This document shows, piece after piece, positions 7,901 through 26,777 of a stretch of 64,000 bases of DNA. Position numbers and translations under genes: made by a program. The DNA lies in contig JAUCEF010000005.1 in NCBI GenBank assembly GCA_033558025.1, forward strand, positions 1,612,001-1,676,000, read 5' to 3'. The notes beneath the pieces are model-generated. The model made no database searches, was not told the origin of the DNA, and saw only the letters and a list, made by a program, of their open reading frames with translations. Numbering within the stretch: position 1 is the first letter of the stretch; the number at the start of each line of letters is the position of its first letter. Origin of the DNA: Phytophthora sp. 'mugwort' (taxonomy: Eukaryota > Oomycota > Peronosporomycetes > Peronosporales > Peronosporaceae).

Positions 7901-10900
7901 AGATAATGGAACAAGTTCAGGATTGATAACAGCTGTGTTGAGGTGCTGCGCTATGGATTATGACTTAGAAGATTCGTATTTACTTCAGGAAAGCGGGGTT
8001 CTGCCGCAGATATTGCGTCTGCTCTCTTCGGATTCGATCCCGACTCGAAATGCAGCACAGTCTCTTTTAGGTGTGCTTCTCTCACGGTGTATTGCCGGCC
8101 GAGTCGAGTCAGATCAGGAAGCAGGTGATGATGATGAATATGCTGTTAGTGATGCACACGATGTTTCGGTCTTCCAACGACAGCTATTTGCAGCAGTTGG
8201 GAACCAGCTTGAAAGGATTGTTTCTGCCGTTAAATCTTCGCTGAACTCAACTCATGACAGGGGGTTCCACAAGTCATCGCCCCAATACCTTCCTGAAAAT
8301 TCGCCTGGATTTACCGCTCCATGTCTACAGCAAAATGTCGTCAGTTGGAACCATTCTATCATGCTTTGGGTGTATAGCTTTAGCAAGGGCCCATTATATG
8401 CTCTTAAGTTAGGAGATGAAGTACGTCATGGGCCAAACTGGAGCGGAACTGACGAATTAGAAAAGGGAGAGACAGATACTGGAACTGTCGTGAGCATTCC
8501 CACCCCAACCAAAGTTCATGTTCGGTGGAACTCGTCGGGTCTGACTTCTCAATGCGAATTTGATCCCAAGCGTGGAATTTTTGACGTGGTCTTAGTCGAT
8601 GAGGGTGCAGGTGGCACAATTTTCTTCAAAGGCAACAAGAATATGATCAGAGATACGGCAGCGGCCAAGCCTTGGAGCCACTTTGGGCTGTTTCTAACGG
8701 ATAGACGGATGCTCGTATACAAAATAGCCTGCGGATCCGACAAAGAAAGCGTCTTTGAAACCGACTATGAAATGGATGCTGATCAGTGGTCTCATGTCGC
8801 TATCGTGCAGGATGAAGACATATTGAGAGTGTATGTCAATGGCTCAATGGTATCGCAGCACCTTCTCGAGTCGTTTTTAGTGATGAATGCAAATATGAAC
8901 CCAGCCGAGTCCGCCATCATTGAATCAGCTCATCCTCTTGAAGACTCTATTGATGAATATTGTCCAGTGCATATTCCAGGTGCTCTCAAAATTCGCTTAA
9001 CGTTTGATCCTCTATGCGATATTGATGGTTCTACAGGGTTTGTGCGGTTCTACAAAGACGCAAAGTGTGTAGATTATTGGGGTGAAGACAAGTATACTGG
9101 CAAGTACAGTGACCCTGAGCGCAATTTCCCCGGTGCTCAAAGTAACCGCGCTCGAAGTCTCCAGCACGCAGAAGCGTCCAACGTGGATTTGAATGTTCTT
9201 GAAATTCCGTCGGATCGATTTTTGGTATATTTTCACAACGAAGGGAGTTCCAACAGCTGGGGCTTCAGGATCCTTGCAGCCCCAGAATTCACCACGACCG
9301 AAGAAGAATCTACGAGCTTAAAAGCGCACTTGAATCCCTATCCGTTCTACTTTGGTGCGGCTCCTGGACGTGTCCTAGATGAGCCTGCAGCCAAATGCTG
9401 GATTTATCAGCCAAAAGTGTTGAATTATTCCATTTCGGAAAGTGATTTAACAACCGAGATTCAGACGAGTTTCCCATCAACGGAGATCGTTTCAAACTGT
9501 GTTCCTTCTGAACGTACTTTGCATATACTTGGATTGATTCGAACATGTGCTGAGACTTCATTTGGGCGGAGCCTCATCGGTACTCCAGTAAACCTCCGAG
9601 ACATTATGTTTCTATCGTTTGATGATCGGGTATCTGTAGAAATTCGAATTGGAGCCATCAGGGTGCTTGAAGACCTTGTTGGGATCCTAAGTCCGGACAT
9701 CATGGACACGCAAGTAGCGAAAGCGCTTCCAGACGAAAGAGATGGCTTCCTGTCGTTTGTTTTCAAACGTTTGGGTCGTGCGTTAAACGTTTGGCAAGCT
9801 TACGAAGATGACAACGCAGTCGTGGTAGATGAAGATGAAGAAGATGCAGATGGCGCTCTTCTAGAGTTGCGGACATCGGCACAGGGGGAAACAAGTTTGG
9901 TGGCTGCTTACATATCGCTGCTTCGTGGTGCGGCGGGGTACTCTTGCTGGAGGGATCAACTATTTGAATTGGTCATAACTGGGCTGCAATCTGTCCAAGC
10001 GCATCAAGGCAAATTGTCGGAACGAGACGTGGGGCACATATTAGCATCGCTTGCGATATTAGGTGGAAATTACGGGGGTGCTTATGTCGGAGGCAGGGTA
10101 AGCTGCTGTGTAAATGTTGATGGCAAGGAGATGGTCGAGACAGGATTTCTGGTACAATTCCGCACGAAAAGTGGAAGCCAAATCGCGCGCGTCATCTTTG
10201 ACTGCGATCAATCAAGCACCGTTGATGTACCTTTGACCGATGTCGCTCACTTAGATGACACCGAGAAAACGGAGCTCGCGTTGTTTCTTAAACGAATGAT
10301 ACCCTTTGCGTCGGAGCTGAAGGATTTATACCAAAGCGTGCTCGATCTAAGTGTTAGTAGATGCCCCTCCGGTGACTCATATCAGCCCAAACTCACAAAA
10401 AAGGAAAACGTGGAGGTACTGGAAAGCGAACATCCCTATGCTGCAGGTGAAGACGTGACGTACTCGCTTAATTTCCGTGGTGCTACCGAAATAATAATCC
10501 GGTTCGATAAATTGTCATGTACCGCTGGTCCGAACGACTTTATTCAGTTTAAAAAGCGGGAAGGAGATCTCACAGAAAGGGGTGGAAATGATAATAAGTA
10601 TTGGGGCGAGGAAAAGTATTATGGTGAGTCATTTCCGGGTGTGGGTCCATCACCCCCACTCCGTATTCCAGCTGGAGGTGTTGATGTACATTTTCACACG
10701 GAGAGCTCGTCTAGTGGTATTTCTGAGTGGGGGTTTAAGCTGACAGCACATGCCTTCGAAGAGACCTTGACCTATCCGCCTGAGATTCCGCCAGCCATTA
10801 TGACAAGTGCATTAAGCGATATCCGTGCGAGGTGTATAAAATCTATTGGACAAGTTGTTGAATCGCTGAAGCGTGCGGATGTTGTTCCCACCTTTACCAC

Positions 10901-13900
10901 GCTGGTACCATTGCTGACGAAGATTGCTAATGCTCCCTGTGACGGGCGCCCAATACAATCATCGCCGAAGTCGCAGATATTTGAGTCGAAACATCCATAC
11001 GCAAACTCGGTGATGGAATACATGAAAGTAACTTTCAGTGGCGCGTCGACGTTGACGATCAGGTTTGACCCACAGTCCCGAACGGAGCAAGGATGCGACT
11101 ACCTTTGCTTCTTTAAAGACAAGTCGTTGACGGCCCGGTGGGGTGCGTATCAGTACTGTGGGGTAGACAGCGACGCTAACTGGCCCGGTGTTGAAGACCG
11201 ACCGCCGCTTGTCATCCCCGCTGACTCCTTCACGCTTCTTTGGACCACTGATGCATCAAATGTCGACTGGGGCTGGAAATTTAATGTAACAGCCGAGTTT
11301 CTGCCAGAGTTTCCTCTTGATAAAAATCTAAAGCAGCTCGATGCTCGATCTTACAGGTTGTTTGAGACGCTGTACGAAAAAATGAATCATCAACGAATCC
11401 CACTCAAGAGCGAGTTTGCCGAGTTCGCTGAAACGGATAATTTATGCAAGGAAAAGCAAAATTCCGATCCAATTCGCCAGCTGCTTACAAGTTGTAGCTC
11501 GAAGGGGGCAGTAAAGCTTGCTGAGTGGGGCAGCATAACGTCGAGAAAGACACAGCAGTTTCGCGTAGCTGCTGAAGATGCAGTTAAGGTTTATGAGAAG
11601 AAAAACCGCGATTCAAATGTTTTGGCTGAGCTGGAGACGGGAACGGAATTTATTGCTGAAGCTGATCTGGACGGGTGGCTAAAAGTTACTTCGGATAACG
11701 TTAATCAGCTTGATAAAGCAAGAGACGGTTGGATATGGCAACGCTCGGGTGATACTATGCACGTCAGTCCCTTAGCTGCGTGTGCCAATGGAGAAGATTT
11801 GCTAACATTGGGGGTGGATGACCTCAATTTAGAAGATATTCATTCAGTGCTGGAAATGGACGAGAGTAACGATGAAGAAAAGTCTCTCATCAGTTTATGC
11901 TCTCCTTTCGTATTTGATGAGCTGAAAGGACAAACCGACCGAATTCAGAGTTTGGCATATGATTCCCACCGAGCGATGGCGACGAAAGCTGCACGCGATG
12001 CAATCCTTACATTCCTTTCATGTGACCCCCAAAAAGATCCGATCCCGCTTAGTATCTTCGGTAATGCCGAAGACATTCTTCTACTCTTGTCGCATTTTTT
12101 CTTAGCTGCAGATTCTGACGCTTTTGACAATCAATCAGGAGTGTTACTTGCACTACGGAAGCGATTGAAGCATATGGTGCTAAGTGGCGTTGACGACTCT
12201 ATTTTGTCTGCTGTTGTCGTTCGATGTCTAGAGATTCTGAAAAATGGCCCACAGCTGCTCCCGAAGGGCCGCGGGGCCGTACGGACATTAGAAAGTGCCC
12301 ACCCGTACTCGGATAACGCAGATCAATACTGGGATATCTCGATTCCTGGAGCCACGAAAATCAAGGTCTTCTTTGATCGTAGATCCAGAAGCGAAGCTGG
12401 ATGTGACTATGTGCGACTTTACAAGGCTGGATCTAACCGAACGGAAACAATTGGCCCTGACCAGATTTGCGGGCGACGAGAGAGTGAAAACTGGCCAGGG
12501 ACAATCGATTGCCCTCCTCTGTATATCGAAGGTGATTCGTTTGAAGTGTACTTCCACTCTGATTCGAGCAATAATGATTGGGGCTTCAAGCTATACGCTA
12601 TCGGAATCTTTAAGGAGGAAGATAGACTGCCCTGTACCGACAAAAAGAGCCCCAACGATTCTGAAATGGTTGTGAAGCTGCTGTCAATGGCTGGCTGGCT
12701 TTTGGAAGCACTGAGCTCAATTTCAGACTCTAACTTTCAGGCGAGCCCCACAGCGTTTCAAATGTTGTATTCGGCTGAAACGTTGCAAACGCTGATGTTA
12801 AGTCTGGATGAATCGCCCCAATGGATTAAGACTTGCGCACTTCAAATACTGAGTAATATGGCTCAGAGTGCAGCTTTCCATACACTCCCGACCGTCCTCA
12901 TTGAGCATGTGCGCGATTTACTGAACGTGAAGATGCGGGCGAAGCACCAGGCTGAGGATCGTGTGAAATTGAAGTCTCCATATTTTCAGGCGCTGGTACA
13001 GTGTGCCATTGCAGTTGATCTATCAATCGATAGCCATTGCTTCGAAGATGTAGAGAGTTTCGACATGGGATCCATCTGTTCTTTGCCGTATCGACCCGGT
13101 ATGAACGATGGTACTTCTACTTCTGTAAGCAGTCTCAGACCATCAGCTTCAGGATGTTATCAGTTCCTGCTACGGTTTCAACGACTCGTATCAACGGTGA
13201 CTATTGGACTTATGGACGGAGTATCTGGAACGTCTTTGGGAGCGCCAAATGTGTTTGTACAGTGGGAAGACAACGGAAAATTATCGTTTAATGCACCTTC
13301 CAATAAGCAACACCTCATTGAAATTCCTGAATACAAAGGTCGATTTCGGGAAGGAGACACGGTGATCATCCTGCTTGATCTTTTGCGACAGACATTGACA
13401 ATCCGGAAAAATAGTATCGTGGCCGCACTTGTAGCAGGACCAGCAGGCTCGGGGGCATTGGTTCGGTGGGACGAACTGCATCCGTCGCTGCACCCCAAAA
13501 GTGACGTTCGACTGGTCGTTTCTCATTCAAGCCCCGATAATCAGATCAAGTTGAGCTCATTAAGCTGTTCTTCTATCGCGCTCATCCCTCAAACTATAGT
13601 ACCAAATTGGTATGGCAAAGTTGTCGATGCTGTAAGCATGATGTTGGATTTTCGCAAAAACTTGTCATCGACAGTGATTTCAAGAGAAAGTCGTCATCCC
13701 TTGGCATCTTCAGCGGCTTCTTCCAACTCTGTACGTGAGCTCATTAACATTGATGATGCGGTGGCAATAGAGATCCGCTTTGACAAAAGAACCATATTTC
13801 AGAAAAGCGATGAGCTCCACTTTTACAGTGCAAGTAAATCTGGTGCAGCATCATCTGACGATACTGGTGATCCATATGCAGTGTTTTCGGGCATTAACGG

Positions 13901-16900
13901 TGAGCAGGATGAGAAGGATATGCCTCACTTATTCGCGCCCGAGGGCACAAAACGGCCGAGTTATTCCTTGTCTGCTGGAGAGTTGGTAGTGAGGTCACCT
14001 GACTGGGAATACAGCGACGAAGATGGTGGAGCTGGAAATATCGGCGTTGTGCAAGAGATTACTTCATGGGGAGTTCACGGAGGAAAAGGTGTGCGCGTGC
14101 GATGGCAAGGAAATGGGTTTGAAAGTGTATATCGTTATGGACTCAATGGCCGCTACGATGTGCAGAATGTGGAGCATACTAAGTACCATACTGCGCCGTT
14201 GATCCTAAGGGGTAGTAGCATTTCGTATGAGTTTGTACGCAGTATATCACAAGCAACTACGAGGCTTGATTTGAGTACTTCTTCCGAGTTTGCCGGTAGC
14301 TTAGAGCTAGACGGGTCTATGCATCTAGATCTGAAAATTGTGGAAGAGGACGCGTTGTCGAAGAGTGATTGCTCTGTTGAATTCTGGGCTTTGATATCCA
14401 AGGATCCATTTGAAAAGGTGGGCGACAGCGGACGTATGGAAGTGCTTCGTATTGATGGTACTCACGGCCGGGTTGTTTTGCTGAGTGACCAATTGGGAAG
14501 ATGCACGCTAGCTCTTCAAGCAGTGGATGCGAGTGGTGAGTTGGTGGAACAGCATCAGGGTCGTGACAACGCTGATAATGACAGTTGTGCGTCGGGTAAT
14601 CTTGTTTTCGGCCAGTGGCTTCATTTAGCACTAGTGTTTTCAGGCTCGAGAGCGTTTGTGGTAAAGAATGGCGATATGATCTACTCGAGACGATGCTCAG
14701 AACACCACCGTCAGGGGCTTGGCACAAATGCAGCTCTTATCTTTGGAAACTCGAGTAGCCATGTCACTTTACCTCATCAGGAGGTCAATACCCACATGTC
14801 ATGCTTAGCATTCTGTGGTCACCTGTATGATATTCGGTTGTGGGATGTCGCGTTCCGAGTTGAGCAACTTCGCAGCCACTTCCGAGGATTGGACAGCGTC
14901 GAAGTGATCCCTAAAAGTAGCAGTCGTCCAGGAACGCCAACGTCTGCGGGTCGAAAGCCTTTATCTCCCTCGATGACATATGTTTCTTCGCCGCGATCGC
15001 CGCGCCCCGTTGCGGTCCCTCAACACATGCGCAAATGGGTCACCACGAATAGGACGAGCAAGGATGTCACCACTGTTCGCCTAAACTGTAGTGTCAAGGT
15101 GCCCATTTCGCTCGATGGTGATGAAAAAGAGACAAATGACACGGCATATTACGAGGCACACGCATTATCAAGTGGAAAACTATGTGTCGGGTGGATTTTG
15201 GATGGCGTGGACATCCACAATAAGTCGACTATGATCGGAGAAGAGCCCAATGCGTTTGGTGTTGATTTGGGAAAGAAGGTGGCTCATTTTTCGACCTTAA
15301 CAACGAACCTTGCATCATTTACCCGAGTCGAACCTACTGTCTGCAGTCCACGACGATTTTCTGGAGGTAGCTCTTTTGGGAATGATATCTTCTGTCGTAA
15401 CGGCGATGTCATCGGCTGCGCAATTAACTTGGCTACTGGTAAGCTAACGTTTTGCGTTAACGGCACGATGGTTGCTGAGTTTGTTCCCTCCGACGATGAT
15501 AGGAGCGACAGCCCAAGCACTGAGGAGGCCCTTGTGCTGGACAACGGCAACGACCATGAATTTGACGCTTTGGTCAGTGAAGTTATCACTATCGAGACGC
15601 CAACAGAGATATCGATGACCAGCGATGCTCACGCTCCAAATTCCAGTGACATGGAAAAAAGGTTTTATCCTTGTGCAAGTCTAGGTCCGCAGGGCGCTCA
15701 AGGTCTAGCATGGAATTTCGGCCAACGACCATTTAAATATGAGCCGGATGCTGACGAAAGAACTGTTCTGTGTCTCTTACAAGCTTCCGGTTATACTGAG
15801 GAGGACGCGTATTTCGAGGTATATGACTACGATGAAGCACAATGGGATCGCATTGTTTATCGCCACAAAGTTCAGGAAATCACGCCTCGTCTTATCGGCT
15901 GGTGGAAATTAAATGAAGGAGTGGGAAATACTGTCGACGATGCTAGTGGCAACTGTCGGCACGGAGTTCTTGCATCACGCAACAATACCGTACGTGAAGG
16001 CTTCGGATCGGGTTTTGCTCGGGTCCTTGACGAAGACGGGGATAGTGTTTGGTGGGACGAGACTTGTTCTCCTCCATCTGCTGCACGCAGACGCGCTGGT
16101 GACGGCATCGCAGCGTCGCCATTTTTCCCCTTTGGGTCTAACAATGATACAGTGAGCAAGCCGGAATCCTTGTGGGGGTACAAGTTTTATGTGATCCCGC
16201 ATTTTTCAATGGAAACAATTGGTCGGCGGCGTTTCCAGTCACCTTTGGTTCGTTTCGGTGAGAGCTCTCACAATTTATTGCCACGTCATGACCAACAACT
16301 AATCAAGTACATTAACAAAAAGGGTCAAAGTAAGGAGCTTAGTGTGACTCAATTGCTGCATGGTCCGTGGAGTGACATTGCTCCTCAAGAAAATGAGTTG
16401 GTGCGTTGGCCGGCTCTAATGGAATTCGTCACTGCGACAGGCAATGAAGCAAAGGTAGAGAAGGTTGAGTCAAAATCTCCCGATTCTCAAGCGTCAGACA
16501 CTGTGAGATTAACCAGGTGTCTAGTCGATGGACACGGTCGTCTGTCCAAGCGGTTTAAAGTGCTGCAAGAATTCAACGCTGCCATCTATCGCCTTTTACC
16601 ATTTATCGCCTTTCATGCTCCAGGCGTGGATGCTTTCGACACTAGTACACACGAGAAGAAATGGATGCTGAGTGATCTGGTGATGGAGCAACGGCATCGT
16701 ATATTGAGCGTCGTGAAGCGCACAGTCTGGGACAGTGCGCTAGGACGTACAAACGAAAGTGGGGTATCATTTGAATTGACACTGAACCGCCCCAAGGCGA
16801 TGCGGTTCCGCGCGAGTGGCAAGACGGATGGGGAAGGACGACACACGCTCTTTTCGCAAGCTTTCCGACAGCTGCAAGCGTTGGATGGCTCACACTTCCG

Positions 16901-17969
16901 ACGTGAAGATGCGTTATACCATGTGATTTTTCTCGGTGAGAACGCACAAGATGCTGGTGGTCCGTACCGCGAGACGTTTGCTCAATACTGTGAGGAATTG
17001 CAGAGTAGTCAGCTGCCGTTGATGCTACCGACGCCAAACTCCCAGCACAATGTTGGTGTTGGACGTGAAAAGTGGTTGCTAAGTCCCGGTGCTCAGTCTA
17101 GTACTGCACTTCAGATGCTCGAGTTTCTCGGTAAACTCATGGGGGCATCGATTCGAAGCAAGCAGTATCTTGCCCTTAATTTGGCGCCTTTGGTATGGAA
17201 GAAACTCGCTGGTGAACGACTAGCTCTGGATGATTTAGCAGCTGTGGATTCGATGCTAGTGAACTCCATGTCAAAAATGCGAACTATTGATCGCTACGGT
17301 GTTACCGAGGAGATGTTTGAGGATATTGTCATGGAGACTTTCACGACGCTCGGAGCCGATAATAAAGTGATCGAGCTTAAGCCTGATGGTGCTCATCTGC
17401 CAGTAACGTTCAGCTCGCGCTGTGAGTACGCTGACCTCGTTGAGCTGGCTCGACTTCACGAAAGCGACGAGCAAGCACGGGCGATTTTCCGTGGGCTTGC
17501 CAAGGTTGTACCAGCCAATCTACTCGCGTGTTTCTCTGGTGCCGAGCTCGAACTCATGGTCTGTGGCTCACCTGAGGTGGACGTGGATCTGCTGGAGAAG
17601 TGCACGGAATACTCGAGCTGTTCACCTTTGGACGACCACATTATTTGGTTCTGGCGAGCACTGCGAGGCTTCTCACATGAGGAGCGTAGCGCTTTCTTGC
17701 GCTTCGTGTGGGGTCGCTCGCGTCTTCCTGCTAGTGCTGACGAATTCCCTCAACGTTTCAAGCTGCAATCATTCAACCAGCAACGTGCAGGTCGCAGTGT
17801 TGACGCCTACATGCCAGTGGCTCATACTTGTTTCTTCTCTATCGAAATACCAGCCTACTCGAGCGAGAGTATATTATGTGAGAAATTGTTGTACGCTATT
17901 TACAACTGCCAAGAAATTGATGGTGATGGCGATAGCGTCGCAGCAAATCAGCTTGGGTGGGAGGAGTGA
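1995..17969 (+). CDS. Giant HECT-type E3 ubiquitin ligase with CUB-like repeats, 5324 aa, intronless
   Basis: This is an uninterrupted frame of almost 16 kb. The C-terminus (about residues 4915-5324) is a HECT domain: it has the N-lobe motif GENAQDAGGPYRETF, and the catalytic cysteine lies in AHTCFF (C5279), so it should receive ubiquitin from an E2 as a thioester. Upstream are five clear CUB-like repeats at about 1432-1540, 2309-2433, 2808-2920, 2995-3103 and 3432-3540, with the signature HPY...SRTE...DY...NWPGV...WGFK; a degenerate one lies near 3894-3950. MIB/HERC2-like modules (GDEVRHGPNW; RSPDWEYSDEDGG) lie near 2137 and 3996, LamG-like segments near 2220 and 4126, SPRY-like segments near 3720 and 4359, and a UBA-like helix near 4586. 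There is no signal peptide, so the protein is probably cytosolic. The first ATG is at 1995; one at 2142 is likelier, because an initiator-like TTCATTTC lies at about 2106 and composition turns GC-rich after it (5275 aa). Confidence 0.9.
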   Translation: MFFAIFGKWPLPLTDYRQIFQEGVLFMPISSSDFEHTSFLSSERDGRVGMGAQASCDAGANNPADPQDERLAARAWRTGVPFTLLHDEGFVVEKYQELLTASSTQSAATQSNNKALEEAQTTVSGLDEAPMDEMQHATDMARIKLFARAKREEVGAGEPSGSQPGSPSSSGPGAASTLTSSMGKENPPSALAGMVGNTLSRDSLESVDSERLRAQRDKLLQVYFEQIAARMRQNRVNTVEQTPEGEGLQDAGGGVAPVVATDSDEMLPHEMPIITRRLEISQGVTAASVFSVGSLRMQLEMLREFSVFSPRLFENGTMALVQTLLDSPPFALQDVPVGSPEDALLSDVHNFCRDVLHLKDEGHVLSDAQRQVLLLLLLAIGVSSGRVRLLLEFVDELLALPNEIATNTSLVQGYPFAAWVKVFMQRMQSYRIDFVLGTFEDSALVNKFAVKTLPGEVENEDTENGSEEPDANLSSSLATDGSFAYTWNITKGLAKIGTGLNFTIAGRVYSEMPANVYLQCLEEKRTVRKLVYGFGENAKDVSEVARDIMARIRATLPVETSQATVHDIFGAADASETFHEFKLLVSYYVNNIQNVCILEDEDVFNLPVSSPEDELAEVKVCRAWYGDLDVLSTEAVLEFCNLLELQRSETANNNDVLGVTLSHQLIEQLLTLTGIPLEKMTDSKKLMVVFACGDNSEFVGAHVLEEGDRFVDEEERLHDAYLSSLSFCGDSLYLNVMYPERDVSGMLSNEPHERCRQLLRISPQDLSFLENLPLQKCISSSFRTSGNTVECTLPLYVYVTDGRLIYEVDIRPGDIGVNVIKPKAIPGGGKTLEITREFILDEKTVLCCEFSLCLAKIRSTLISNDDRMEVQLPSFYTNGASLGMLIVDPNSQDYVSLKNRVHCMLFDCESGQAKKLHDNGEETGCLERSLSSISVCFDARNNFLWLYDEHKRVLLSYQNSGKRVPLDENSIPLEVASRKTSGGEESNFTETTALSLLGFLYKNAVASDGKDGEGNGSVIRIPFAVDAEVETFKLLLAFISKYVDIFKAKEASIVQVYILQACLGILNKNLESLLQLAGGRCNQESFSLLMSGLSTPLDKLLEFSSEQQDCKGVATEGQVPSRGSSLLQSDEKSCVQVASVALDLYTTSIRIFHSDVSKQFTHVLKYLQLWQQSTATRMELKILARLLAHLCTRVDAIYQSLVTSEDAIEQFLKLVEFAVGMQKRQLRRAFVGSDDISDDAAAFPDSNESSFELISLVNAITQASFVALCCASDTPSRKAFDVAVVVFDTIRDACSSICCDVTDHVRQQDCRTRWSDIEIVLKDGFVGILAPVVLSSGIMLLRNRKSIEAMLMINDDGGPENSGSELEVSQDLNGSVTSKSSALSSRLFEFLKDNSSKLLNFMVNLDALVSMIDPTKREHTVENISMTLKTETLESSHEYENNMDALTELQVPGATRMVITFDPRSRTEVNYDYLTFFKDKSQGEYYGSQFYSGRDSEQNWPGVGDNPPLTIENDRCFVYFHTDGSNTDWGYKFTATAEILERKKSLQQHWIVFLLESVVQLLDESIKLLVDGSAFAPIKDIEVQNEQYLQSDLLRSGVCTGDSKNAEVLRLLQDFVDPPESSDAEKVIQALHVRSGVSRPAMALARSTSFDQITSSAPNQCVNRAVRAVAAAILHHNMWGMDAYAFTQNLRDDISEQLLRGWKNAQKMRDWFHLGDAADAGIHGQTVPNRRRSGRLRRQPSAYKGLSEESLAILCDNVIKRARFLLEITPVSFAYVTGAKRRWGLLAKYGHAIGKQSSTDTQLDKWYNLLDELQAATELRSLFQYRRSSSERLKHGQVKSVTEQVLEFIQSDVDISEVQKVIDVRNRRAASRALGMEILIQALKNCPSLRLRGILLESFTSTLKSFAIANSPTNVPGSSLISPTSAMDSFPRLHFDTLLSGCDESLRQRIAEAFGNCLTIFAQQLASTPDNGTSSGLITAVLRCCAMDYDLEDSYLLQESGVLPQILRLLSSDSIPTRNAAQSLLGVLLSRCIAGRVESDQEAGDDDEYAVSDAHDVSVFQRQLFAAVGNQLERIVSAVKSSLNSTHDRGFHKSSPQYLPENSPGFTAPCLQQNVVSWNHSIMLWVYSFSKGPLYALKLGDEVRHGPNWSGTDELEKGETDTGTVVSIPTPTKVHVRWNSSGLTSQCEFDPKRGIFDVVLVDEGAGGTIFFKGNKNMIRDTAAAKPWSHFGLFLTDRRMLVYKIACGSDKESVFETDYEMDADQWSHVAIVQDEDILRVYVNGSMVSQHLLESFLVMNANMNPAESAIIESAHPLEDSIDEYCPVHIPGALKIRLTFDPLCDIDGSTGFVRFYKDAKCVDYWGEDKYTGKYSDPERNFPGAQSNRARSLQHAEASNVDLNVLEIPSDRFLVYFHNEGSSNSWGFRILAAPEFTTTEEESTSLKAHLNPYPFYFGAAPGRVLDEPAAKCWIYQPKVLNYSISESDLTTEIQTSFPSTEIVSNCVPSERTLHILGLIRTCAETSFGRSLIGTPVNLRDIMFLSFDDRVSVEIRIGAIRVLEDLVGILSPDIMDTQVAKALPDERDGFLSFVFKRLGRALNVWQAYEDDNAVVVDEDEEDADGALLELRTSAQGETSLVAAYISLLRGAAGYSCWRDQLFELVITGLQSVQAHQGKLSERDVGHILASLAILGGNYGGAYVGGRVSCCVNVDGKEMVETGFLVQFRTKSGSQIARVIFDCDQSSTVDVPLTDVAHLDDTEKTELALFLKRMIPFASELKDLYQSVLDLSVSRCPSGDSYQPKLTKKENVEVLESEHPYAAGEDVTYSLNFRGATEIIIRFDKLSCTAGPNDFIQFKKREGDLTERGGNDNKYWGEEKYYGESFPGVGPSPPLRIPAGGVDVHFHTESSSSGISEWGFKLTAHAFEETLTYPPEIPPAIMTSALSDIRARCIKSIGQVVESLKRADVVPTFTTLVPLLTKIANAPCDGRPIQSSPKSQIFESKHPYANSVMEYMKVTFSGASTLTIRFDPQSRTEQGCDYLCFFKDKSLTARWGAYQYCGVDSDANWPGVEDRPPLVIPADSFTLLWTTDASNVDWGWKFNVTAEFLPEFPLDKNLKQLDARSYRLFETLYEKMNHQRIPLKSEFAEFAETDNLCKEKQNSDPIRQLLTSCSSKGAVKLAEWGSITSRKTQQFRVAAEDAVKVYEKKNRDSNVLAELETGTEFIAEADLDGWLKVTSDNVNQLDKARDGWIWQRSGDTMHVSPLAACANGEDLLTLGVDDLNLEDIHSVLEMDESNDEEKSLISLCSPFVFDELKGQTDRIQSLAYDSHRAMATKAARDAILTFLSCDPQKDPIPLSIFGNAEDILLLLSHFFLAADSDAFDNQSGVLLALRKRLKHMVLSGVDDSILSAVVVRCLEILKNGPQLLPKGRGAVRTLESAHPYSDNADQYWDISIPGATKIKVFFDRRSRSEAGCDYVRLYKAGSNRTETIGPDQICGRRESENWPGTIDCPPLYIEGDSFEVYFHSDSSNNDWGFKLYAIGIFKEEDRLPCTDKKSPNDSEMVVKLLSMAGWLLEALSSISDSNFQASPTAFQMLYSAETLQTLMLSLDESPQWIKTCALQILSNMAQSAAFHTLPTVLIEHVRDLLNVKMRAKHQAEDRVKLKSPYFQALVQCAIAVDLSIDSHCFEDVESFDMGSICSLPYRPGMNDGTSTSVSSLRPSASGCYQFLLRFQRLVSTVTIGLMDGVSGTSLGAPNVFVQWEDNGKLSFNAPSNKQHLIEIPEYKGRFREGDTVIILLDLLRQTLTIRKNSIVAALVAGPAGSGALVRWDELHPSLHPKSDVRLVVSHSSPDNQIKLSSLSCSSIALIPQTIVPNWYGKVVDAVSMMLDFRKNLSSTVISRESRHPLASSAASSNSVRELINIDDAVAIEIRFDKRTIFQKSDELHFYSASKSGAASSDDTGDPYAVFSGINGEQDEKDMPHLFAPEGTKRPSYSLSAGELVVRSPDWEYSDEDGGAGNIGVVQEITSWGVHGGKGVRVRWQGNGFESVYRYGLNGRYDVQNVEHTKYHTAPLILRGSSISYEFVRSISQATTRLDLSTSSEFAGSLELDGSMHLDLKIVEEDALSKSDCSVEFWALISKDPFEKVGDSGRMEVLRIDGTHGRVVLLSDQLGRCTLALQAVDASGELVEQHQGRDNADNDSCASGNLVFGQWLHLALVFSGSRAFVVKNGDMIYSRRCSEHHRQGLGTNAALIFGNSSSHVTLPHQEVNTHMSCLAFCGHLYDIRLWDVAFRVEQLRSHFRGLDSVEVIPKSSSRPGTPTSAGRKPLSPSMTYVSSPRSPRPVAVPQHMRKWVTTNRTSKDVTTVRLNCSVKVPISLDGDEKETNDTAYYEAHALSSGKLCVGWILDGVDIHNKSTMIGEEPNAFGVDLGKKVAHFSTLTTNLASFTRVEPTVCSPRRFSGGSSFGNDIFCRNGDVIGCAINLATGKLTFCVNGTMVAEFVPSDDDRSDSPSTEEALVLDNGNDHEFDALVSEVITIETPTEISMTSDAHAPNSSDMEKRFYPCASLGPQGAQGLAWNFGQRPFKYEPDADERTVLCLLQASGYTEEDAYFEVYDYDEAQWDRIVYRHKVQEITPRLIGWWKLNEGVGNTVDDASGNCRHGVLASRNNTVREGFGSGFARVLDEDGDSVWWDETCSPPSAARRRAGDGIAASPFFPFGSNNDTVSKPESLWGYKFYVIPHFSMETIGRRRFQSPLVRFGESSHNLLPRHDQQLIKYINKKGQSKELSVTQLLHGPWSDIAPQENELVRWPALMEFVTATGNEAKVEKVESKSPDSQASDTVRLTRCLVDGHGRLSKRFKVLQEFNAAIYRLLPFIAFHAPGVDAFDTSTHEKKWMLSDLVMEQRHRILSVVKRTVWDSALGRTNESGVSFELTLNRPKAMRFRASGKTDGEGRHTLFSQAFRQLQALDGSHFRREDALYHVIFLGENAQDAGGPYRETFAQYCEELQSSQLPLMLPTPNSQHNVGVGREKWLLSPGAQSSTALQMLEFLGKLMGASIRSKQYLALNLAPLVWKKLAGERLALDDLAAVDSMLVNSMSKMRTIDRYGVTEEMFEDIVMETFTTLGADNKVIELKPDGAHLPVTFSSRCEYADLVELARLHESDEQARAIFRGLAKVVPANLLACFSGAELELMVCGSPEVDVDLLEKCTEYSSCSPLDDHIIWFWRALRGFSHEERSAFLRFVWGRSRLPASADEFPQRFKLQSFNQQRAGRSVDAYMPVAHTCFFSIEIPAYSSESILCEKLLYAIYNCQEIDGDGDSVAANQLGWEE

Positions 17970-18668: not shown

Positions 18669-21600
18669 CTAGCTAGCGTTGGTGACAGTAGATTTTCGTC
18701 GAGCCTTGCGGCCTTCCTCCGTCTCATCCACGTCATCGAAATCATCGTCGTAGTCGGCTTCCTCCTCGCCGTTCCCCTTGTTACTTGGTACGATTTGTGG
18801 CAAAGTTTCAGGTTTCGTATCTTGAACAGGAGTAGCAGGTTTTTCCAGCTTGGAATCACACTCTCTCGTGCTCGTAAGTGGTGCCTGAGGTTCTGATGGC
18901 ACTTCAAGTGGCGCAGCTGTCAACGTTTTCTTCATCACCTTGATCCATTCCGCTAATTTCATAAGCATTGCGTCACTTTCTGCTGTCATATCCGTCGTCC
19001 CTACCGCATCAGGATCATTATAGCATGTTAGAAAAAATGCCTTAGAATCAATAATACCCGACTATTTTGCGTACTCACCAATAGCAAGGACGTAGAGCTT
19101 AGCGATCTCAGCTCCCAGCTTGTCTTCCTTAGTCTTTACAGGAACTGACGTGTTACCACCTCCTTTGGCACCAGTCATCTGTAACAGAGATTGATATCGC
19201 TCTAACTGCTCCTGTAGCTCACTTAACTCGTCCTCTTTTGAGTTCATACGGTCCGTCACCCACACTAACCACAACAATGTAAAATAAAAAGGTTAGCAAA
19301 ACCACAGTTGCTAGTCAGCCTCCTAAAAAGAGCCAACAGATTTACCGTAGCCGTCTCGAATACGTTCGATCTCCTGATCTTTCTCGTTCGTCTCAGCGAA
19401 GAGCTGTTCTTCCTTCTGTCGAGCCGAATCACGTTCATCCGTGACCACTTGCAGCTGTAATTGTAGCTCTTCTTCAGTCTCTTCCAGCTCCTTTACCCGC
19501 TTGACAGACTCATTCAGTATCTGCTCGGCTTGTCGTGTCTTGTCGTCACTTGCAGCAAGTTCCTGCTCTAGACTCTGCACTTTTGCCTCCATCTTCTCCA
19601 GTTCAGCCAGTTGACGGAGTTCGTTCGTCTGTGCCTCCAGCAACAGTCTCTCGCTCTCTCGTACTGCTTCCGAATTGTCGCTGCTAGTATCGGCTCCAGC
19701 ACTTGCAGGGCTAATTACTTGAGTCTGCGTCTGAAATTCAGCCTCTGCTGTCTCTGCTCGCCGTCTCCAGCTCTCTAGCTCAGCTCCTGTAGTCGCGCAT
19801 TGAGTTTCTAGTCGACTTGCAGCTTGTTTGAGCAGGTTTTCAGCCGCCAACGCGCGTTCGAGCTCCTGTTTCACGTGATCACACTCATCAAGAAGAGCTC
19901 GAATAGCAGCCTCACTCTCTGTTACACGAGCCTTAAGCTTTGCGTCTGCCTCGGCCTCTTTCTCCATAAGCGCAGCACGCGTCTGCTGCAAAAGTGAATA
20001 CTGTTGTTGTCCGAATGACGCTTGCTCTTTGGCTTGTAGCTCAGCTGCCTCGAGAGCACGACGCTGCTCGTCCACCTGCACACGCATAGACATGAGTTCT
20101 CCATTGAGTTCTGCAATGCGTGACTGTCCTTCTTGCTGACTGGCATCTTGTTCCTGCTTGTTGTTGGTCAACTGTGCACGCAGATTCGCTGCCAGCTCCT
20201 CAAGCTGCTGTTTAGTTTGCTGCAGAGCCTCATAAGCACGCTTGTGCTCTCCAGCTTGCATTGATAGCGTCTGTATCTCGTGTTCTTGTTCACTTAGCTG
20301 GGTTTGCAGACTATCTCCACGCCGCTTAAGTTCCTTTCCTTGAGTTGTAGCCTGCGCCAGCTCGCTTTGAAGTGTATCTCCACGACTTTTCTCCCGATCC
20401 GCTCGCTGGTTTGCGGTCTCGATCTGAGCACTGATGTGGGCGTGCTGCTCTTGTATCTCGCGCTCCTTCTTCTCCCAACTTGCACTCGCAGCTCTCAACT
20501 TGGCTAGTTCTTCGCCATAACTCGCTAACTGCGCATACTTTTCACTCTCCGCGACCTTAGCACGGTCATACAAGGCACGAGCGTCCTCCAGTACCAATAC
20601 AGCGGCATGTCGAAGCTGTTCAAGCAGTGCGTGAGCTTTTAATGCTAAGGCTTCAATCGTTTGTGCCAGTGAACTATTCTCATGAGCTTCACGGCCGAAG
20701 ATTTCGCACTGTAAAGCTGCACAGTGATGCCATTTGACACTCGTAAGCTGTAGGAAGCGACCTGCTCTGCTGTTATCCGCCTTGTTCTCATCTGCTGCTA
20801 ATGCTATCGAGACGATCCCTTCGGCATCAGTGTTGGCATTAAACTCTCCAAGGACCCGCCAGTCTCGAGCGTTACCCGTAAAACTTGTCGCCACCTGAAG
20901 ACGAGTAACCCATCCATCTTGAGGAGTATCTGGACAAGTTTCAACTCGTGCTTCGGTCTCAGCTACCGACGATTTATCAGCAAGAGTTTGCTCTTGAATG
21001 GCTGCTACAGGGGATACTTGCGGGTGTTGTATAGCATGATCTATCGCTGCCAAGGCGAAATACCCCAGGAACTGTACAGTGTCTATCGGCTCTTTGCCTG
21101 CTAGGATGTTGGAGGCGGTAGCTGCGATGAGCACACTAGACGCATCCGTACTATTCTGTTGATACCAAGCTTGCACATAGTCCAGAATGGCTGATAAATA
21201 CTCGGATCGTTCTGTCTTGGTGGGGAGTTGTGCGTACTCACGCTGTGCTGCTGATACGGCGTCACACGCAAAGCCTGTGTTTTGCATGACGGCCGAGATG
21301 ACATCGTGCAGGAAGCGCACCGGTGGTCGAGCAAATAATTTCACTGGGATGACGTCTGTCTTGAGCAGATTCTGCCACGACATGACATGACTCAGTAGTT
21401 TGTACGTCAGCTCGTTCGTTCCAGTCACCTCATTAAGTTGGTATTGAGTTCTCACTGTCTGAAGGTCAGTCGAGCTGGCCAAGACAAAAGTGGAAGCAGG
21501 TGAGGAAGTGGAAGCACCAGTCGGGGTAGCTGCTCGAGCTTCGAGTAATGACGGACTTCCGCCCGGTTGAACTTTACCACCACGCACAGAGACCGAATCG

Positions 21601-24017
21601 AAAATACGAGGAAGCTCGAAATCAATCACCACTGACGGAATCGCATCGTGTACGTCAGGAACCCAGCACTGCGCTCCATTGAGTCGAATAAACTTAGCGT
21701 CTTGTGCTTTTGACGAGGCTGAAAAACACTCGTCAGGTAGCAACCGCGAGTCGAGCCCCAGCGCAGCAACCTCTCCATCTCCGACGTATTCCGCAAAGTT
21801 CGTGTCTAAAACTGAATCGAAATCTGTCTTCCAGGTATCTTCCCAAGCTTTTGATACATCCAGAAGCTTCGTTTTAACCTCTTCCCAACGTGTAAGCTGT
21901 GTCGCGACCTCAGGAGATTGTGTGGCAGCACCTTGAGACGATAAAATCATCTGCTGATCCGCGAAACTCACGAAGTGTTTAATCACAGTAGTGAAGGCGA
22001 AAATCCGTTGACGATCGCTCTTGATGGACTCAACAAGAGCTGAGCGCTGAGTGCGTACTAAGGCCAAGGTAATTGAAAGCCCACGCTCACGCTCTTCAAG
22101 AAGTTGCTCCTGTTCCTTCGCTGCTTTTGCTGCCTGAGCTACATTTGAAGTTGTCTTTTCAGCGGCAGTAGCCGCTGCAGCAGCTTGCTCAGCTTTCAAC
22201 TGAGCGTGGTGTGTCTTCAATCGCAATAGCTCACGGGTCATCGTGTTGATCAACGCGCTGCGGTCACTAACGAGCTGTCCCTCTAACGTGAGCAGCTTGT
22301 CACTTTCCTCTCCAATATTTTGCAACTTGCTCCCCATTTGGCTGGCTGTCATGTGCGCGGCTGATGCAGCAGCAGAGTCTTCACGGCGCTGAGGTAAGAG
22401 ATTCTTGGTCGACTTGGAAGCCTGGCTGGTGTCTGGAGTGAGGCCACAGCGACGAGCCCAGAGCTCCACATCTTTTTGTAATGAGTCTCGAAAGACCTGA
22501 ATAAGCGTACGTAAGTCTTTAGCTTGACCCTCCATCGTCTTAACCTTTTGAGCAGTCTCGAGCCATTGCACAGCTACGGAAGCATCGCTTGCGGTTGCAG
22601 TATTACCATCGAGATCACGAAGAGCTCGCATCATGAGCTCCAGATCCCCTTTTTCCTCCAGCAATCGCCACTTCTTGGTGCGTTCTTCACGAATGCGTTG
22701 GTCAGCCAATGCGCGTTCTCGTGCGAGTTTTTTGCGCTCCACTTCGTGTTGTTTCGACAGCTTGGCCTTATCCTCCCACGTCTGCAATCTCACGCGGTCC
22801 ATCTCTTGGATCTGCTTCTCGTACTTCTTGACGATCTCGTCCTTCTCCTTAGGGTCAAGACCAAGCGTAGCCTCCATTTGCTCTTGAAGTTTTTGCTTGA
22901 GCGTTGCAATCTCGTCATTGAGCTGTGAGATTTGGGACGAAGCCTCATTCTTCTTAGCGTTCACTTTGATACTCTTCGCGCGACTAGCGTACTTGAGCGT
23001 ACTCAATGTCTCGGCAAAGTTGATACTGGCCGGTGACAGCGTTGCGAGCATAGAACAGAGACTATTGCCACCTAAAGACTCCTGCAGCACACGCGTCAGC
23101 TTGGAGTTACGGTACGGGATAAATACCTTCTTGCTAGCACGAGAGGCTTCGACGAGAGCGTTGATCACATTGCCCAAAGCACTCAGCGATTTGTTAATAT
23201 TGGCTCCTTCTCGAAGTCGATCACCTTGTGCTCCCGTAGACGCAGCACGTTCCGAGCCAGCAAGATCGACGAGATTAATCTTAGCAAAGACACTCTTTGC
23301 TTCATCATCGGCATCTTTTTGGTGGATCTTGATGGTAAAGATTGAGTGCGAGCGTGAACTCTCGGCATTCATTTGAGTATACCCCACTGTTCGTGATTGT
23401 GCTCCCAGTGTCATGAGCTCGACGATCTCTTCTCGTGTCTCCACGACCCGCTCTTGAAGGTCTTTTACGTAGATCCCCAGCACTGAGTGCTCTTTGATCT
23501 CCAAACCGCCTTTGTTTTTCTTGCCATTCCCACTAGAGTCGAGTAAGTCGTAGATGATTTCGTTGTAAATCTCAAAGAACGAGCACTCTACTAGGAAGCG
23601 CTTGTGGGGGGTTTCGACACGTTCTTTGGCCACACGGTCGAAAATGGCGCGGTTAACTCGAGGAATGAGGCCTTCAAGAGCCTCGTGGCCTCCAGTCACG
23701 CCCGTCATACTGAAAGACTTGCCACTTCCTGTCTGTCCATATGCAAAGATGGTGCCGTTATAGCCTCCGAAAGCCCGATCTAAGAGAGGCACACCAATAT
23801 CGTCAAACACGCTCTCTTGCTTCGAGTCACACCCGTAGACGAAATCAAAGCCGAATTCGTGCTTCTCGGCCGGATTGTCCATGTTGGTGAGCACGGCCGT
23901 GCCATTCGGTCCACACGTAAAGCATGAGACCGCCTGCTCGCGGTTCTCACGCTCGTTCATGGGCCGACATCGCACGGCCACGCGAATGTTCTCGGCCTCT
24001 TTCTCGTCGGGCTTCAT
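18669..24017 (-). CDS. Kinesin with N-terminal motor, IFT54-like CH domain nested in a discoidin-like domain, and long coiled coil; 1729 aa
   Basis: Exons are 19346..24017, 19079..19264 and 18669..19000. The introns (81 and 78 nt) have donors GTAAAT and GTGAGT, and the 5190-nt total keeps phase. The motor is residues 8-352: P-loop GQTGSGKS at 94-101, switch I NAESSRSHSIF, switch II LVDLAGSER. Then comes a helical segment to about 770. Residues about 773-814 (RLNGAQCW...VVIDFELPR) resemble the first half of a discoidin/F5-8C fold, and about 1034-1108 (DGWVTRL...ALQCEIFG) the second half. Between them, about 890-995, FARPPVRFLHDVISAVMQN resembles the N-terminal tubulin-binding CH domain of IFT54/TRAF3IP1. 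Residues 1110-1700 are coiled coil, ending in an acidic/basic tail. The N-terminal motor suggests plus-end transport, and the IFT54-like part suggests a flagellar role. The motor call is firm; the tail assignment is by eye. Confidence 0.88.
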
Positions 24018-25184: not shown

Positions 25185-26777
25185 ATGGCCGACGTGGTGA
25201 TGAAGGAGCCTGTGGACCTGTCCGGAGACGGCGGCGTGCTCAAGGAGACGTATGTTGAGGGCTCGGGCGAGTTCCCGCCCGCCGGCGACGAGATTCGCGG
25301 TGTGTATGCCTCGATTCAACTGATATCTGCGCTACGTATTATGCTTCTGACTTGACTTTTATACGTCTCTTTTAGCCCACTACACCGGTACGTTGCTGGA
25401 TGGCACGAAGTTCGACAGTTCGCGCGACCGCGACTCGGACTTTAAGTTCGTGCTGGGCAAGGGCAATGTGATTAAGGCCTGGGACTTGGCCTTCGCCTCG
25501 ATGAAAGTCGGCGAGGTACGACGCTGAGACTGAGGGCAATGGGTAACTGAAGTGGGAACAGCTGAACTGATTTATTGGCGCTTTTGTGACTGCAGAAAGC
25601 TATGCTGACGTGCAAACCCGAGTACGCGTATGGCGCGAACGGCAGCCCACCTAAGATTCCGGCCAACGCCACGCTCAAGTTTGACGTGGAGCTGCTGGGC
25701 TTCAGCCCTAAGGCCAAGGAGATGTGGGAGATGGACACCGAGGAAAAGATTGCGGAGGCCAACAAGCTTAAGGCGAAGGGCACGGAGCAGTTCAAGGCCA
25801 AACAGTTTGACACCGCCGCCGATACGTACAACCAAGCTACCTCATACATGGAGGATATGTACGACGTTGCTGAAGAGGACAAGAGGACGATGAAGCAGCT
25901 ACAGACGACGTGCTTCCTGAACGCCGCCATGGCGTACCTCAAGGCGGAGAACTACACGGAAGCCGTGACCGTCGCCACCAAGGCCCTGAAAAACGATCCC
26001 TCGAATGTCAAGGCGCTGTACCGCCGTGGTGTGGGCCGCATGCACACGAATGACCTGGAGCGCGCGAAGGAGGACCTGCTGGCTGCTGGCAAACAGGATC
26101 CGGCTAACCGCGAGGTTCGTCGCGAGTTGGAGGTGCTCAAGAAGAAGATGAAGGAGGCACGCCAGAAGGAGAAAGCGGTGTTCGGCGGACTGTTCGGCAA
26201 AGTGTCTATGTACGACGACAAGTCGACTGTGGAGACTGAACCAGTGCTAGACCCCAACAATCCGAAGGTTTTCTTTGACATTAAGATCGGCGAAGAGGAC
26301 GCCGGCAAGGTCGTGATGCAGTTGTACAAGGACGTGTGTCCAAAGACGGCCGAGAACTTCCGGGCGCTGTGTACGGGCGAGAAGGGCAACTGCTCGACGG
26401 GCCAGCCATTGCACTACAAGGGCAGCTCGTTCCATCGTGTGATCAAGAGCTTCATGATTCAGGGCGGTGACTTTACCCGTGGCGACGGCACAGGCGGCGA
26501 GAGCATCTACGGTGAGAAGTTCGAGGACGAGAACTTCGTGCTTAAACACACGGAGGGCGGTTTGCTATCCATGGCCAACGCCGGTCCGGGCACGAACGGG
26601 TCGCAGTTCTTCATCACGACTGTACCCACGCCGCATCTGGACGGCAAGCACGTGGTGTTCGGTAAGGTCGTGGAGGGTTTCGAGGTGATCAAGCGTATTG
26701 AGGGTCTCAAGACGGACAAGGGCGACAAGCCTGCTGAGCCCGTCGTCATTGCTGACTGCGGCATGTACGAGGCATAA
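25185..26777 (+). CDS. FKBP-TPR-cyclophilin dual immunophilin, 478 aa
   Basis: Exons are 25185..25299, 25376..25515 and 25596..26777, with introns of 76 and 80 nt and phase preserved throughout. Residues about 15-120 are an FKBP prolyl isomerase domain ([31 protein letters not shown]) with the drug-pocket Trp and Tyr kept. Residues about 130-275 are TPR helices ([30 protein letters not shown]). Residues about 305-478 are a cyclophilin ([26 protein letters not shown]). The catalytic Arg is R366. The position equal to Trp121 of human CypA is His (H432, in TPHLDGKH), as in Cyp40, which predicts weaker cyclosporin binding. The FKBP-TPR-cyclophilin order is that of the dual FCBP immunophilins known from Toxoplasma. 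TPR domains of this type often bind Hsp90 C-termini. There is no signal peptide, so it is probably cytosolic. Confidence 0.93.

What the first reader, a model, noticed from the sequence alone, without database searches (positions are those of the whole stretch)
18669..24017. Kinesin carrying an IFT54-like CH domain nested inside a discoidin-like domain
Seen: after the motor, residues about 773-814 and 1034-1108 look like the two halves of one discoidin/F5-8C fold (RLNGAQCW...VVIDFELPR and DGWVTRL...CEIFG), with about 220 residues between them. Within that insert, FARPPVRFLHDVISAVMQN and the following helices resemble the N-terminal CH domain of IFT54/TRAF3IP1 (family pattern: KPPFRYLHDII). Known: IFT54 binds tubulin and belongs to the IFT-B train. 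Inference: one polypeptide may combine motor and IFT-adaptor functions, a design I do not know from other kinesins.
Basis: partly seen in the sequence, partly recalled or inferred. Interest (0 to 1): 0.8.

Follow-up and report, generated by a model that had tools for sequence, protein, structure and literature searches.

The report
Kinesin with nested IFT54-like tail domain
This gene encodes a molecular motor whose tail carries a docking domain of the kind seen in the flagellar transport protein IFT54, set into the middle of a second, beta-sandwich domain; the same design recurs in many single-celled relatives, which points to a motor family I have not seen described.

The parts
18669..24017 (-). 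whole coding region, 1729 aa; exons 24017-19346, 19264-19079, 19000-18669; introns 19345-19265 and 19078-19001
   Evidence: junction 1 matches relatives' consensus
22968..23972 (-). kinesin motor domain, aa 16-350; motifs GQTGSGKS at 94, NAESSRSH at 217, DLAGSE at 251
   Evidence: PF00225 2.1e-109; motifs
22638..22955 (-). neck and first helical stretch, aa 355-460, with EKQIQEM...TWEDK aligned to KIF13B
   Evidence: alignment to KIF13B (6a20) runs to aa 430
21570..21791 (-). N-terminal half of the discoidin (F5/8C) domain, aa 743-816
21021..21428 (-). inserted IFT54/MIP-T3-type CH domain, aa 864-999 (Pfam core 883-990 = 21048-21371)
   Evidence: PF10243 1.8e-11; Foldseek rank 1 IFT54 CH 5fmu
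20673..20927 (-). C-terminal half of the discoidin domain, aa 1031-1115
19347..19490 (-). conserved C-terminal helical block, aa 1510-1557 (LQLQVVTDERDSARQKEEQLF...GYV), continuing into exon 2
   Evidence: profile hit in 65 of 69 nested, 35 of 41 CH-only and 3 of 18 CH-less members

Best explanation
Shown: a kinesin with intact motor motifs, of a family found in stramenopiles and at least one dinoflagellate. Its stalk carries a discoidin domain, and one loop of that domain is replaced by a whole IFT54-type CH domain on linkers of 1 to 52 residues (6 sequences measured). Inferred: the protein is a plus-end-directed dimeric motor that works in the flagellum. The CH domain acts as it does in IFT54, as a docking surface for a short peptide of a partner, most likely dynein-2's WDR60 extension or another IFT-linked client. 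The discoidin holds the CH at its ligand-binding pole and may add a second contact. The motor would thus carry or tether IFT or dynein-2 cargo without building into the IFT-B core.
For: Architecture. The junction lies in the loop that aligns to neuropilin-1 GTQGAISKE/TKKKYYV (Aphanomyces relative). Of 16 CH columns conserved in 80% or more of up to 113 kinesin CH domains, 11 are identical in both of the genome's own IFT54 CH domains and 2 in one of them; the exceptions are R897 (K there), K975 (L) and L884 (gap). In one clade the CH persists without a recognisable discoidin; if that is a loss, the CH is the more strongly kept part. IFT54 CH binds WDR60: interface predicted at 375-388, direct binding confirmed by pull-down of purified proteins (PMC10987677, passages). 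Flagellar link, indirect: the genome has IFT54 and a kinesin-2 pair, and kinesin motor domains are among those under-represented in non-flagellate downy mildews (PMC6264045, passages).
Against: No expression, localisation or binding data. The family is not kinesin-2, the known IFT motor. [quoted passage not shown] WDR60 was not sought in this genome. Absence from non-flagellate oomycetes could not be controlled. Loss against gain of the discoidin is unresolved (p-AU 0.25).
Confidence: 0.45

Rival explanations
1. The CH domain binds tubulin or the microtubule lattice, making this a motor with a second microtubule site or a tubulin carrier.
For: Chlamydomonas IFT54 CH can bind tubulin dimers in vitro (Taschner 2016, as cited in PMC10320715, passages).
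Against: Kinesin CH net charge -3 (window), medians -3 (69 nested, range -7 to +4) and -2 (41 CH-only, range -6 to +2), against +4 and +2 for the genome's own IFT54 CH domains. The spans differ in length (136 against 111 aa) and a local basic patch is not ruled out. Loss of the IFT54 CH domain does not stop ciliogenesis.
Confidence: 0.2
2. A vesicle or membrane motor like other kinesin-3s: the discoidin binds lipid or a membrane protein, the CH domain is an accessory protein contact, and flagella are not involved.
For: Nearest paralog L007 has KIF1A as best solved hit (294.9 bits) and is sister in the trees; the neck aligns to KIF13B. A factor VIII C2 domain bound to phosphatidylserine is among the fold matches (7s0p).
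Against: The CH domain sits where a loop of the discoidin would be, and one clade has the CH without a discoidin. No FHA or PH domain was found in the 1564-aa frame or in the 199-aa tail.
Confidence: 0.25
3. The CH insert is a passive, structural relic with no partner.
For: IFT54 CH is itself dispensable for ciliogenesis.
Against: 115 of 133 sequences examined have a CH hit; P898 and P899 are kept in 113 of 113. It is present without the discoidin in one clade.
Confidence: 0.05

Closest known systems
IFT54 / TRAF3IP1 / MIP-T3 (N-terminal CH domain)
   Same: CH fold and signature (K/R)PPxxFxxD, TG, GxE..T; best solved-structure neighbours
   Different: in a motor, inside a discoidin; MIP-T3_C region not found; slightly acidic rather than basic
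Discoidin / F5/8 type C domains (neuropilin b1, factor VIII C2, lactadherin)
   Different: split by a whole CH domain at one loop; taken to be intracellular (inference, no signal sequence was looked for)
Kinesin-3 (KIF1A, KIF13B) and the genome's L007 paralog
   Same: motor and neck similarity, tree position beside L007
   Different: no FHA domain found; different tail
Kinesin-2 (OSM-3, KIF3B)
   Same: N-terminal motor; OSM-3 is the single best solved motor hit (305.2 bits, 308.7)
   Different: the genome's kinesin-2 pair (L005, L006) forms a separate clade; different tail
Plant KCH kinesins (kinesin-14 with a CH domain; recalled)
   Same: kinesin plus a CH domain
   Different: recalled: classical CH at the N-terminus of a kinesin-14; here an IFT54-type CH behind an N-terminal motor

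Membership tests
IFT54 (TRAF3IP1/MIP-T3) | MIP-T3-type CH domain | tested here: met
   PF10243 1.8e-11; 5fmu rank 1
IFT54 (TRAF3IP1/MIP-T3) | C-terminal MIP-T3_C region | tested here: not met
   no PF17749 at E<=1 in the 1564-aa frame or in the last 199 aa; own IFT54 has it at 2.4e-37. One of seven relatives' tails shows it at E 0.061, far below cut-off
Discoidin / F5/8C | F5/8C beta-sandwich fold | tested here: met
Discoidin / F5/8C | Pfam score above curated cut-off | tested here: inconclusive
   window with insert removed 24.5 bits against 28.2; three relatives 51.2-76.4 bits
Kinesin superfamily | motor domain with nucleotide motifs | tested here: met
Kinesin-2 | groups with kinesin-2 motors | tested here: not met
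   L005 and L006 (KIF3B best, 419.8 and 404.3 bits) pair at 100/100 and 100/99, apart from the query family
Kinesin-3 | FHA domain behind the motor | tested here: not met
   no FHA hit at E<=1 in the 1564-aa frame or the tail
Kinesin-3 | motor phylogeny | tested here: inconclusive
   sister to L007 (100/98; 96/91), itself classed only by best hit KIF1A; long branches warned of
IFT motor | moves with or binds IFT trains | not testable with these tools
   needs experiment

The most novel reading that the evidence does not exclude
An undescribed, ancient kinesin family of stramenopiles and alveolates in which IFT54's dynein-2-docking domain was built into a motor, through insertion into the ligand loop of a discoidin, giving these flagellates an IFT-linked motor that bypasses the usual adaptor; a clade that includes dinoflagellates later shed the host discoidin and kept the docking domain.
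Probability: 0.25. Interest if true: 0.82.

Novelty: new variant of a known kind. Interest (0 to 1): 0.62.

Why it matters
All parts are familiar, but the assembly is new to me and I found no description of it in the searches named. It joins a motor to the IFT-B domain that binds dynein-2's WDR60, in flagellates whose IFT is little studied. If the flagellar reading is right, some lineages have a second, adaptor-in-motor route for IFT cargo, testable by one pull-down and one gene removal. It is also a clear case of nested domains in which the guest domain occurs without its host in one clade.

Tried and rejected
Kinesin-2 identity, suggested by the best solved hit OSM-3, was rejected: L005 and L006 score 419.8 and 404.3 bits to KIF3B and branch apart. 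'Oomycete-specific', suggested by the first two protein searches (33 rows each, oomycete where named), was rejected by the motor search.

Discoidin hidden by divergence in the CH-only group: profile comparison of its flanks (39 sequences, cut on P0097) gave 0.1-0.3% probability. An AlphaFold model of P0118 has no strand of 3 or more residues after residue 253. That model is weak overall (pLDDT 68.8, motor poorly modelled); the blocks over its CH region are at 76-92.

Order of events: the best trees put nested forms on both sides of the CH-only clade, implying loss of the discoidin. A tree with all nested rows together is not rejected (p-AU 0.25), so polarity is open. Both trees carry a long-branch warning at the root. 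Rows dropped: for, 24 of the 114 relatives with a CH hit (mostly near-copies of other oomycete rows) were left out; for, 40 relatives and the query were hand-picked's rows, with 4 of 5 outgroups.

IFT57 lead: the window's last 199 aa match PF10498 (IFT57 coil) at E 0.0031, 17 bits against a cut-off of 40. Six of seven relatives' tails show it too at E 0.019-0.087, but beside many unrelated coiled-coil families, often with better scores, and whole-protein scans of 12 relatives at E<=0.1 did not list it. I treat it as coiled-coil noise unless shown otherwise.

VIA-align showed 50 discoidin rows and no IFT54 row; the CH match rests on Foldseek and Pfam. The neck pattern W[EDQ][ED]K is not a family mark: 54 of 69 nested, 23 of 41 CH-only, 9 of 18 without CH.

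Flagellate/non-flagellate profile: no Peronospora, Hyaloperonospora or Bremia name appears, while Plasmopara and Albugo do. I could not show that those proteomes are in the database, so I claim nothing from it. The flagellar gene table of PMC3471859 is in a supplement that could not be read.

Print: searches (nine, PMC open-licence papers) listed no paper that describes this architecture, judged from listings and from passages of eight papers looked into (PMC3471859, PMC2867816, PMC5795050, PMC10191852, PMC6264045, PMC10987677, PMC10320715, PMC5931796). Subscription papers and supplements, including the 105 kinesin architectures of PMC2867816, were not seen. Viral contigs: no relative. One search translated minus-strand loci on the wrong strand and is superseded.

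Full report
WHAT IS THERE. The minus strand of 18669-24017 carries one long open frame (1564 aa) continued by two short exons, 1729 aa in all. Residues 16-350 are a kinesin motor (PF00225, 2.1e-109) with the three nucleotide motifs present. Residues 883-990 match the CH domain of MIP-T3/IFT54 (PF10243, 1.8e-11, 44.4 bits against a cut-off of 23.4).

THE NESTING. Pfam does not see a discoidin in the intact window protein, but it does in relatives. Of 12 relatives scanned, 12 have PF10243 and 9 have PF00754 (7 of these above its cut-off); P0045, P0065 and P0097 have none. In 8 of the 9 the best F5/8C stretch is the second half of the profile, behind the CH domain. In Triparma P0052 it is the first half (positions 4-56, at 741-795), ahead of the CH at 851-966. 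In Aphanomyces P0032 both sides show: an F5/8C_2 match at 722-752 (under its cut-off), CH at 805-902, F5/8C at 935-1000. Cutting the CH out turns the flanks into one F5/8C match across the junction in 4 of 4 sequences tried, the window's own under the cut-off. The joined Aphanomyces sequence finds neuropilin-1 at 3.5e-19 (b1 domain alone 1.4e-14), with the junction in one loop, GTQGAISKE/TKKKYYV. From recall, that is the loop that helps hold neuropilin's peptide ligands, and the counterpart of a factor VIII C2 membrane spike.

DISTRIBUTION. The two tail-region searches listed 33 rows each, oomycete where named. The motor search (best 120 of 5393 listed, 7970 candidates scored) extended the family to Triparma, Effrenium and many unnamed transcriptome and metagenome proteins; an Aureococcus protein (P0071) has only weak traces. 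With profiles made from alignment A3, 69 of 133 sequences (132 relatives and the query) show N-half, CH and C-half in order, 41 CH alone, 4 N-half and CH, 1 CH and C-half, 18 none; the 18 include short or motor-only models and other kinesins. The profiles were built from A3 rows with under 40% gaps, which are among the sequences searched, so the count is not independent; the Pfam scans above are. A C-terminal helical block is a further family mark: 65 of 69, 35 of 41, and 3 of 18 without CH.

GUEST WITHOUT HOST. Of the 41 CH-only sequences, 40 fall in one clade (SH-aLRT 99, 96-row tree) that includes Effrenium, a dinoflagellate; the other, P0114, is an 851-aa protein elsewhere. In a 45-row tree the 15 CH-only rows used are one clade at 100/100. 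Their flanks show no discoidin by profile comparison or in the model of P0118. The best trees imply loss of the discoidin, but the opposite is not rejected (p-AU 0.25).

WHICH KINESIN. The genome's kinesin-2 pair L005/L006 (KIF3B best) branches apart. The nearest own paralog among the 30 motor loci fetched is L007 (49% identity), best hit KIF1A at 294.9 bits, OSM-3 269.6. For the query itself the order is OSM-3 first, then KIF1A and KIF13B. The neck aligns to KIF13B as far as aa 430. No FHA was found. I call it kinesin-3-related, family not formally assigned.

HOW IT MAY WORK. IFT54's CH domain can bind tubulin in vitro (cited) and binds dynein-2's WDR60 (predicted at residues 375-388, direct binding by pull-down; PMC10987677 and PMC10320715, passages only). 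IFT54 is thought to recruit kinesin-II to trains (PMC10191852, passages). In the kinesins, what is conserved is the IFT54 motif (13 of 16 conserved columns shared with one or both own IFT54 CH domains), not a basic charge: net -3 against +4 and +2. So a peptide-docking role fits better than tubulin carriage. WDR60 as the partner, and the flagellum as the place, are inference. Kinesin motor domains as a class are among those under-represented in non-flagellate downy mildews (PMC6264045, passages), which is consistent but not specific.

Three database calls were added while the report was held against its sources: the tail scan, its repeat in relatives and L006. They leave the scores unchanged. 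They add a weak, recurrent IFT57-like coil in the C-terminal block, told under Tried and rejected.

VERDICT. Observation confirmed and extended; interpretation partly supported; a new variant of a known kind.

Noticed in passing
L001:1501-1833 and L002:1501-1833 (G000:C16:2862458-2862790 and 2863278-2863610): The genome's own IFT54 locus has two tandem MIP-T3 CH domains (129.1 and 128.2 bits) before a MIP-T3_C region, apparently one gene with an intron between (by eye); from recall, IFT54 has one.
   Followed up: partly
L004:1420-3188 (G000:C17:4276569-4276757): A third locus with a partial MIP-T3 CH domain (28.9 bits), followed by a frame with an IQ-like stretch (by eye) and no Pfam hit.
   Followed up: partly
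window 1995-17969 (+): Giant 5324-aa single-frame ORF ending in a HECT ubiquitin ligase domain, with MIB_HERC2, SPRY, laminin-G-like and CUB matches.
   Followed up: partly
window 25602-26777 (+): Part of an FKBP domain, TPR repeats and a cyclophilin in one frame, two kinds of prolyl isomerase together; the FKBP match starts at profile position 63, so the gene probably begins upstream.
   Followed up: no
G000:C9:880757-881818 (-) and 889132-890193 (+): Two pairs of kinesin matches with identical scores on opposite strands about 7 kb apart, an apparent inverted duplication.
   Followed up: no
L035 (G000:C13:4757500-4766900), minus strand: Kinesin paralog L007, closest to the finding among the motor loci fetched, with an SWEEK neck but no CH match in the PF10243 genome search.
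   Followed up: partly
window 19490-18669 (-), aa 1510-1729: Sub-threshold IFT57 coiled-coil match (E 0.0031, 17 bits, cut-off 40) in the kinesin's tail, recurring at E 0.019-0.087 in 6 of 7 relatives' tails among many other coiled-coil families.
   Followed up: partly
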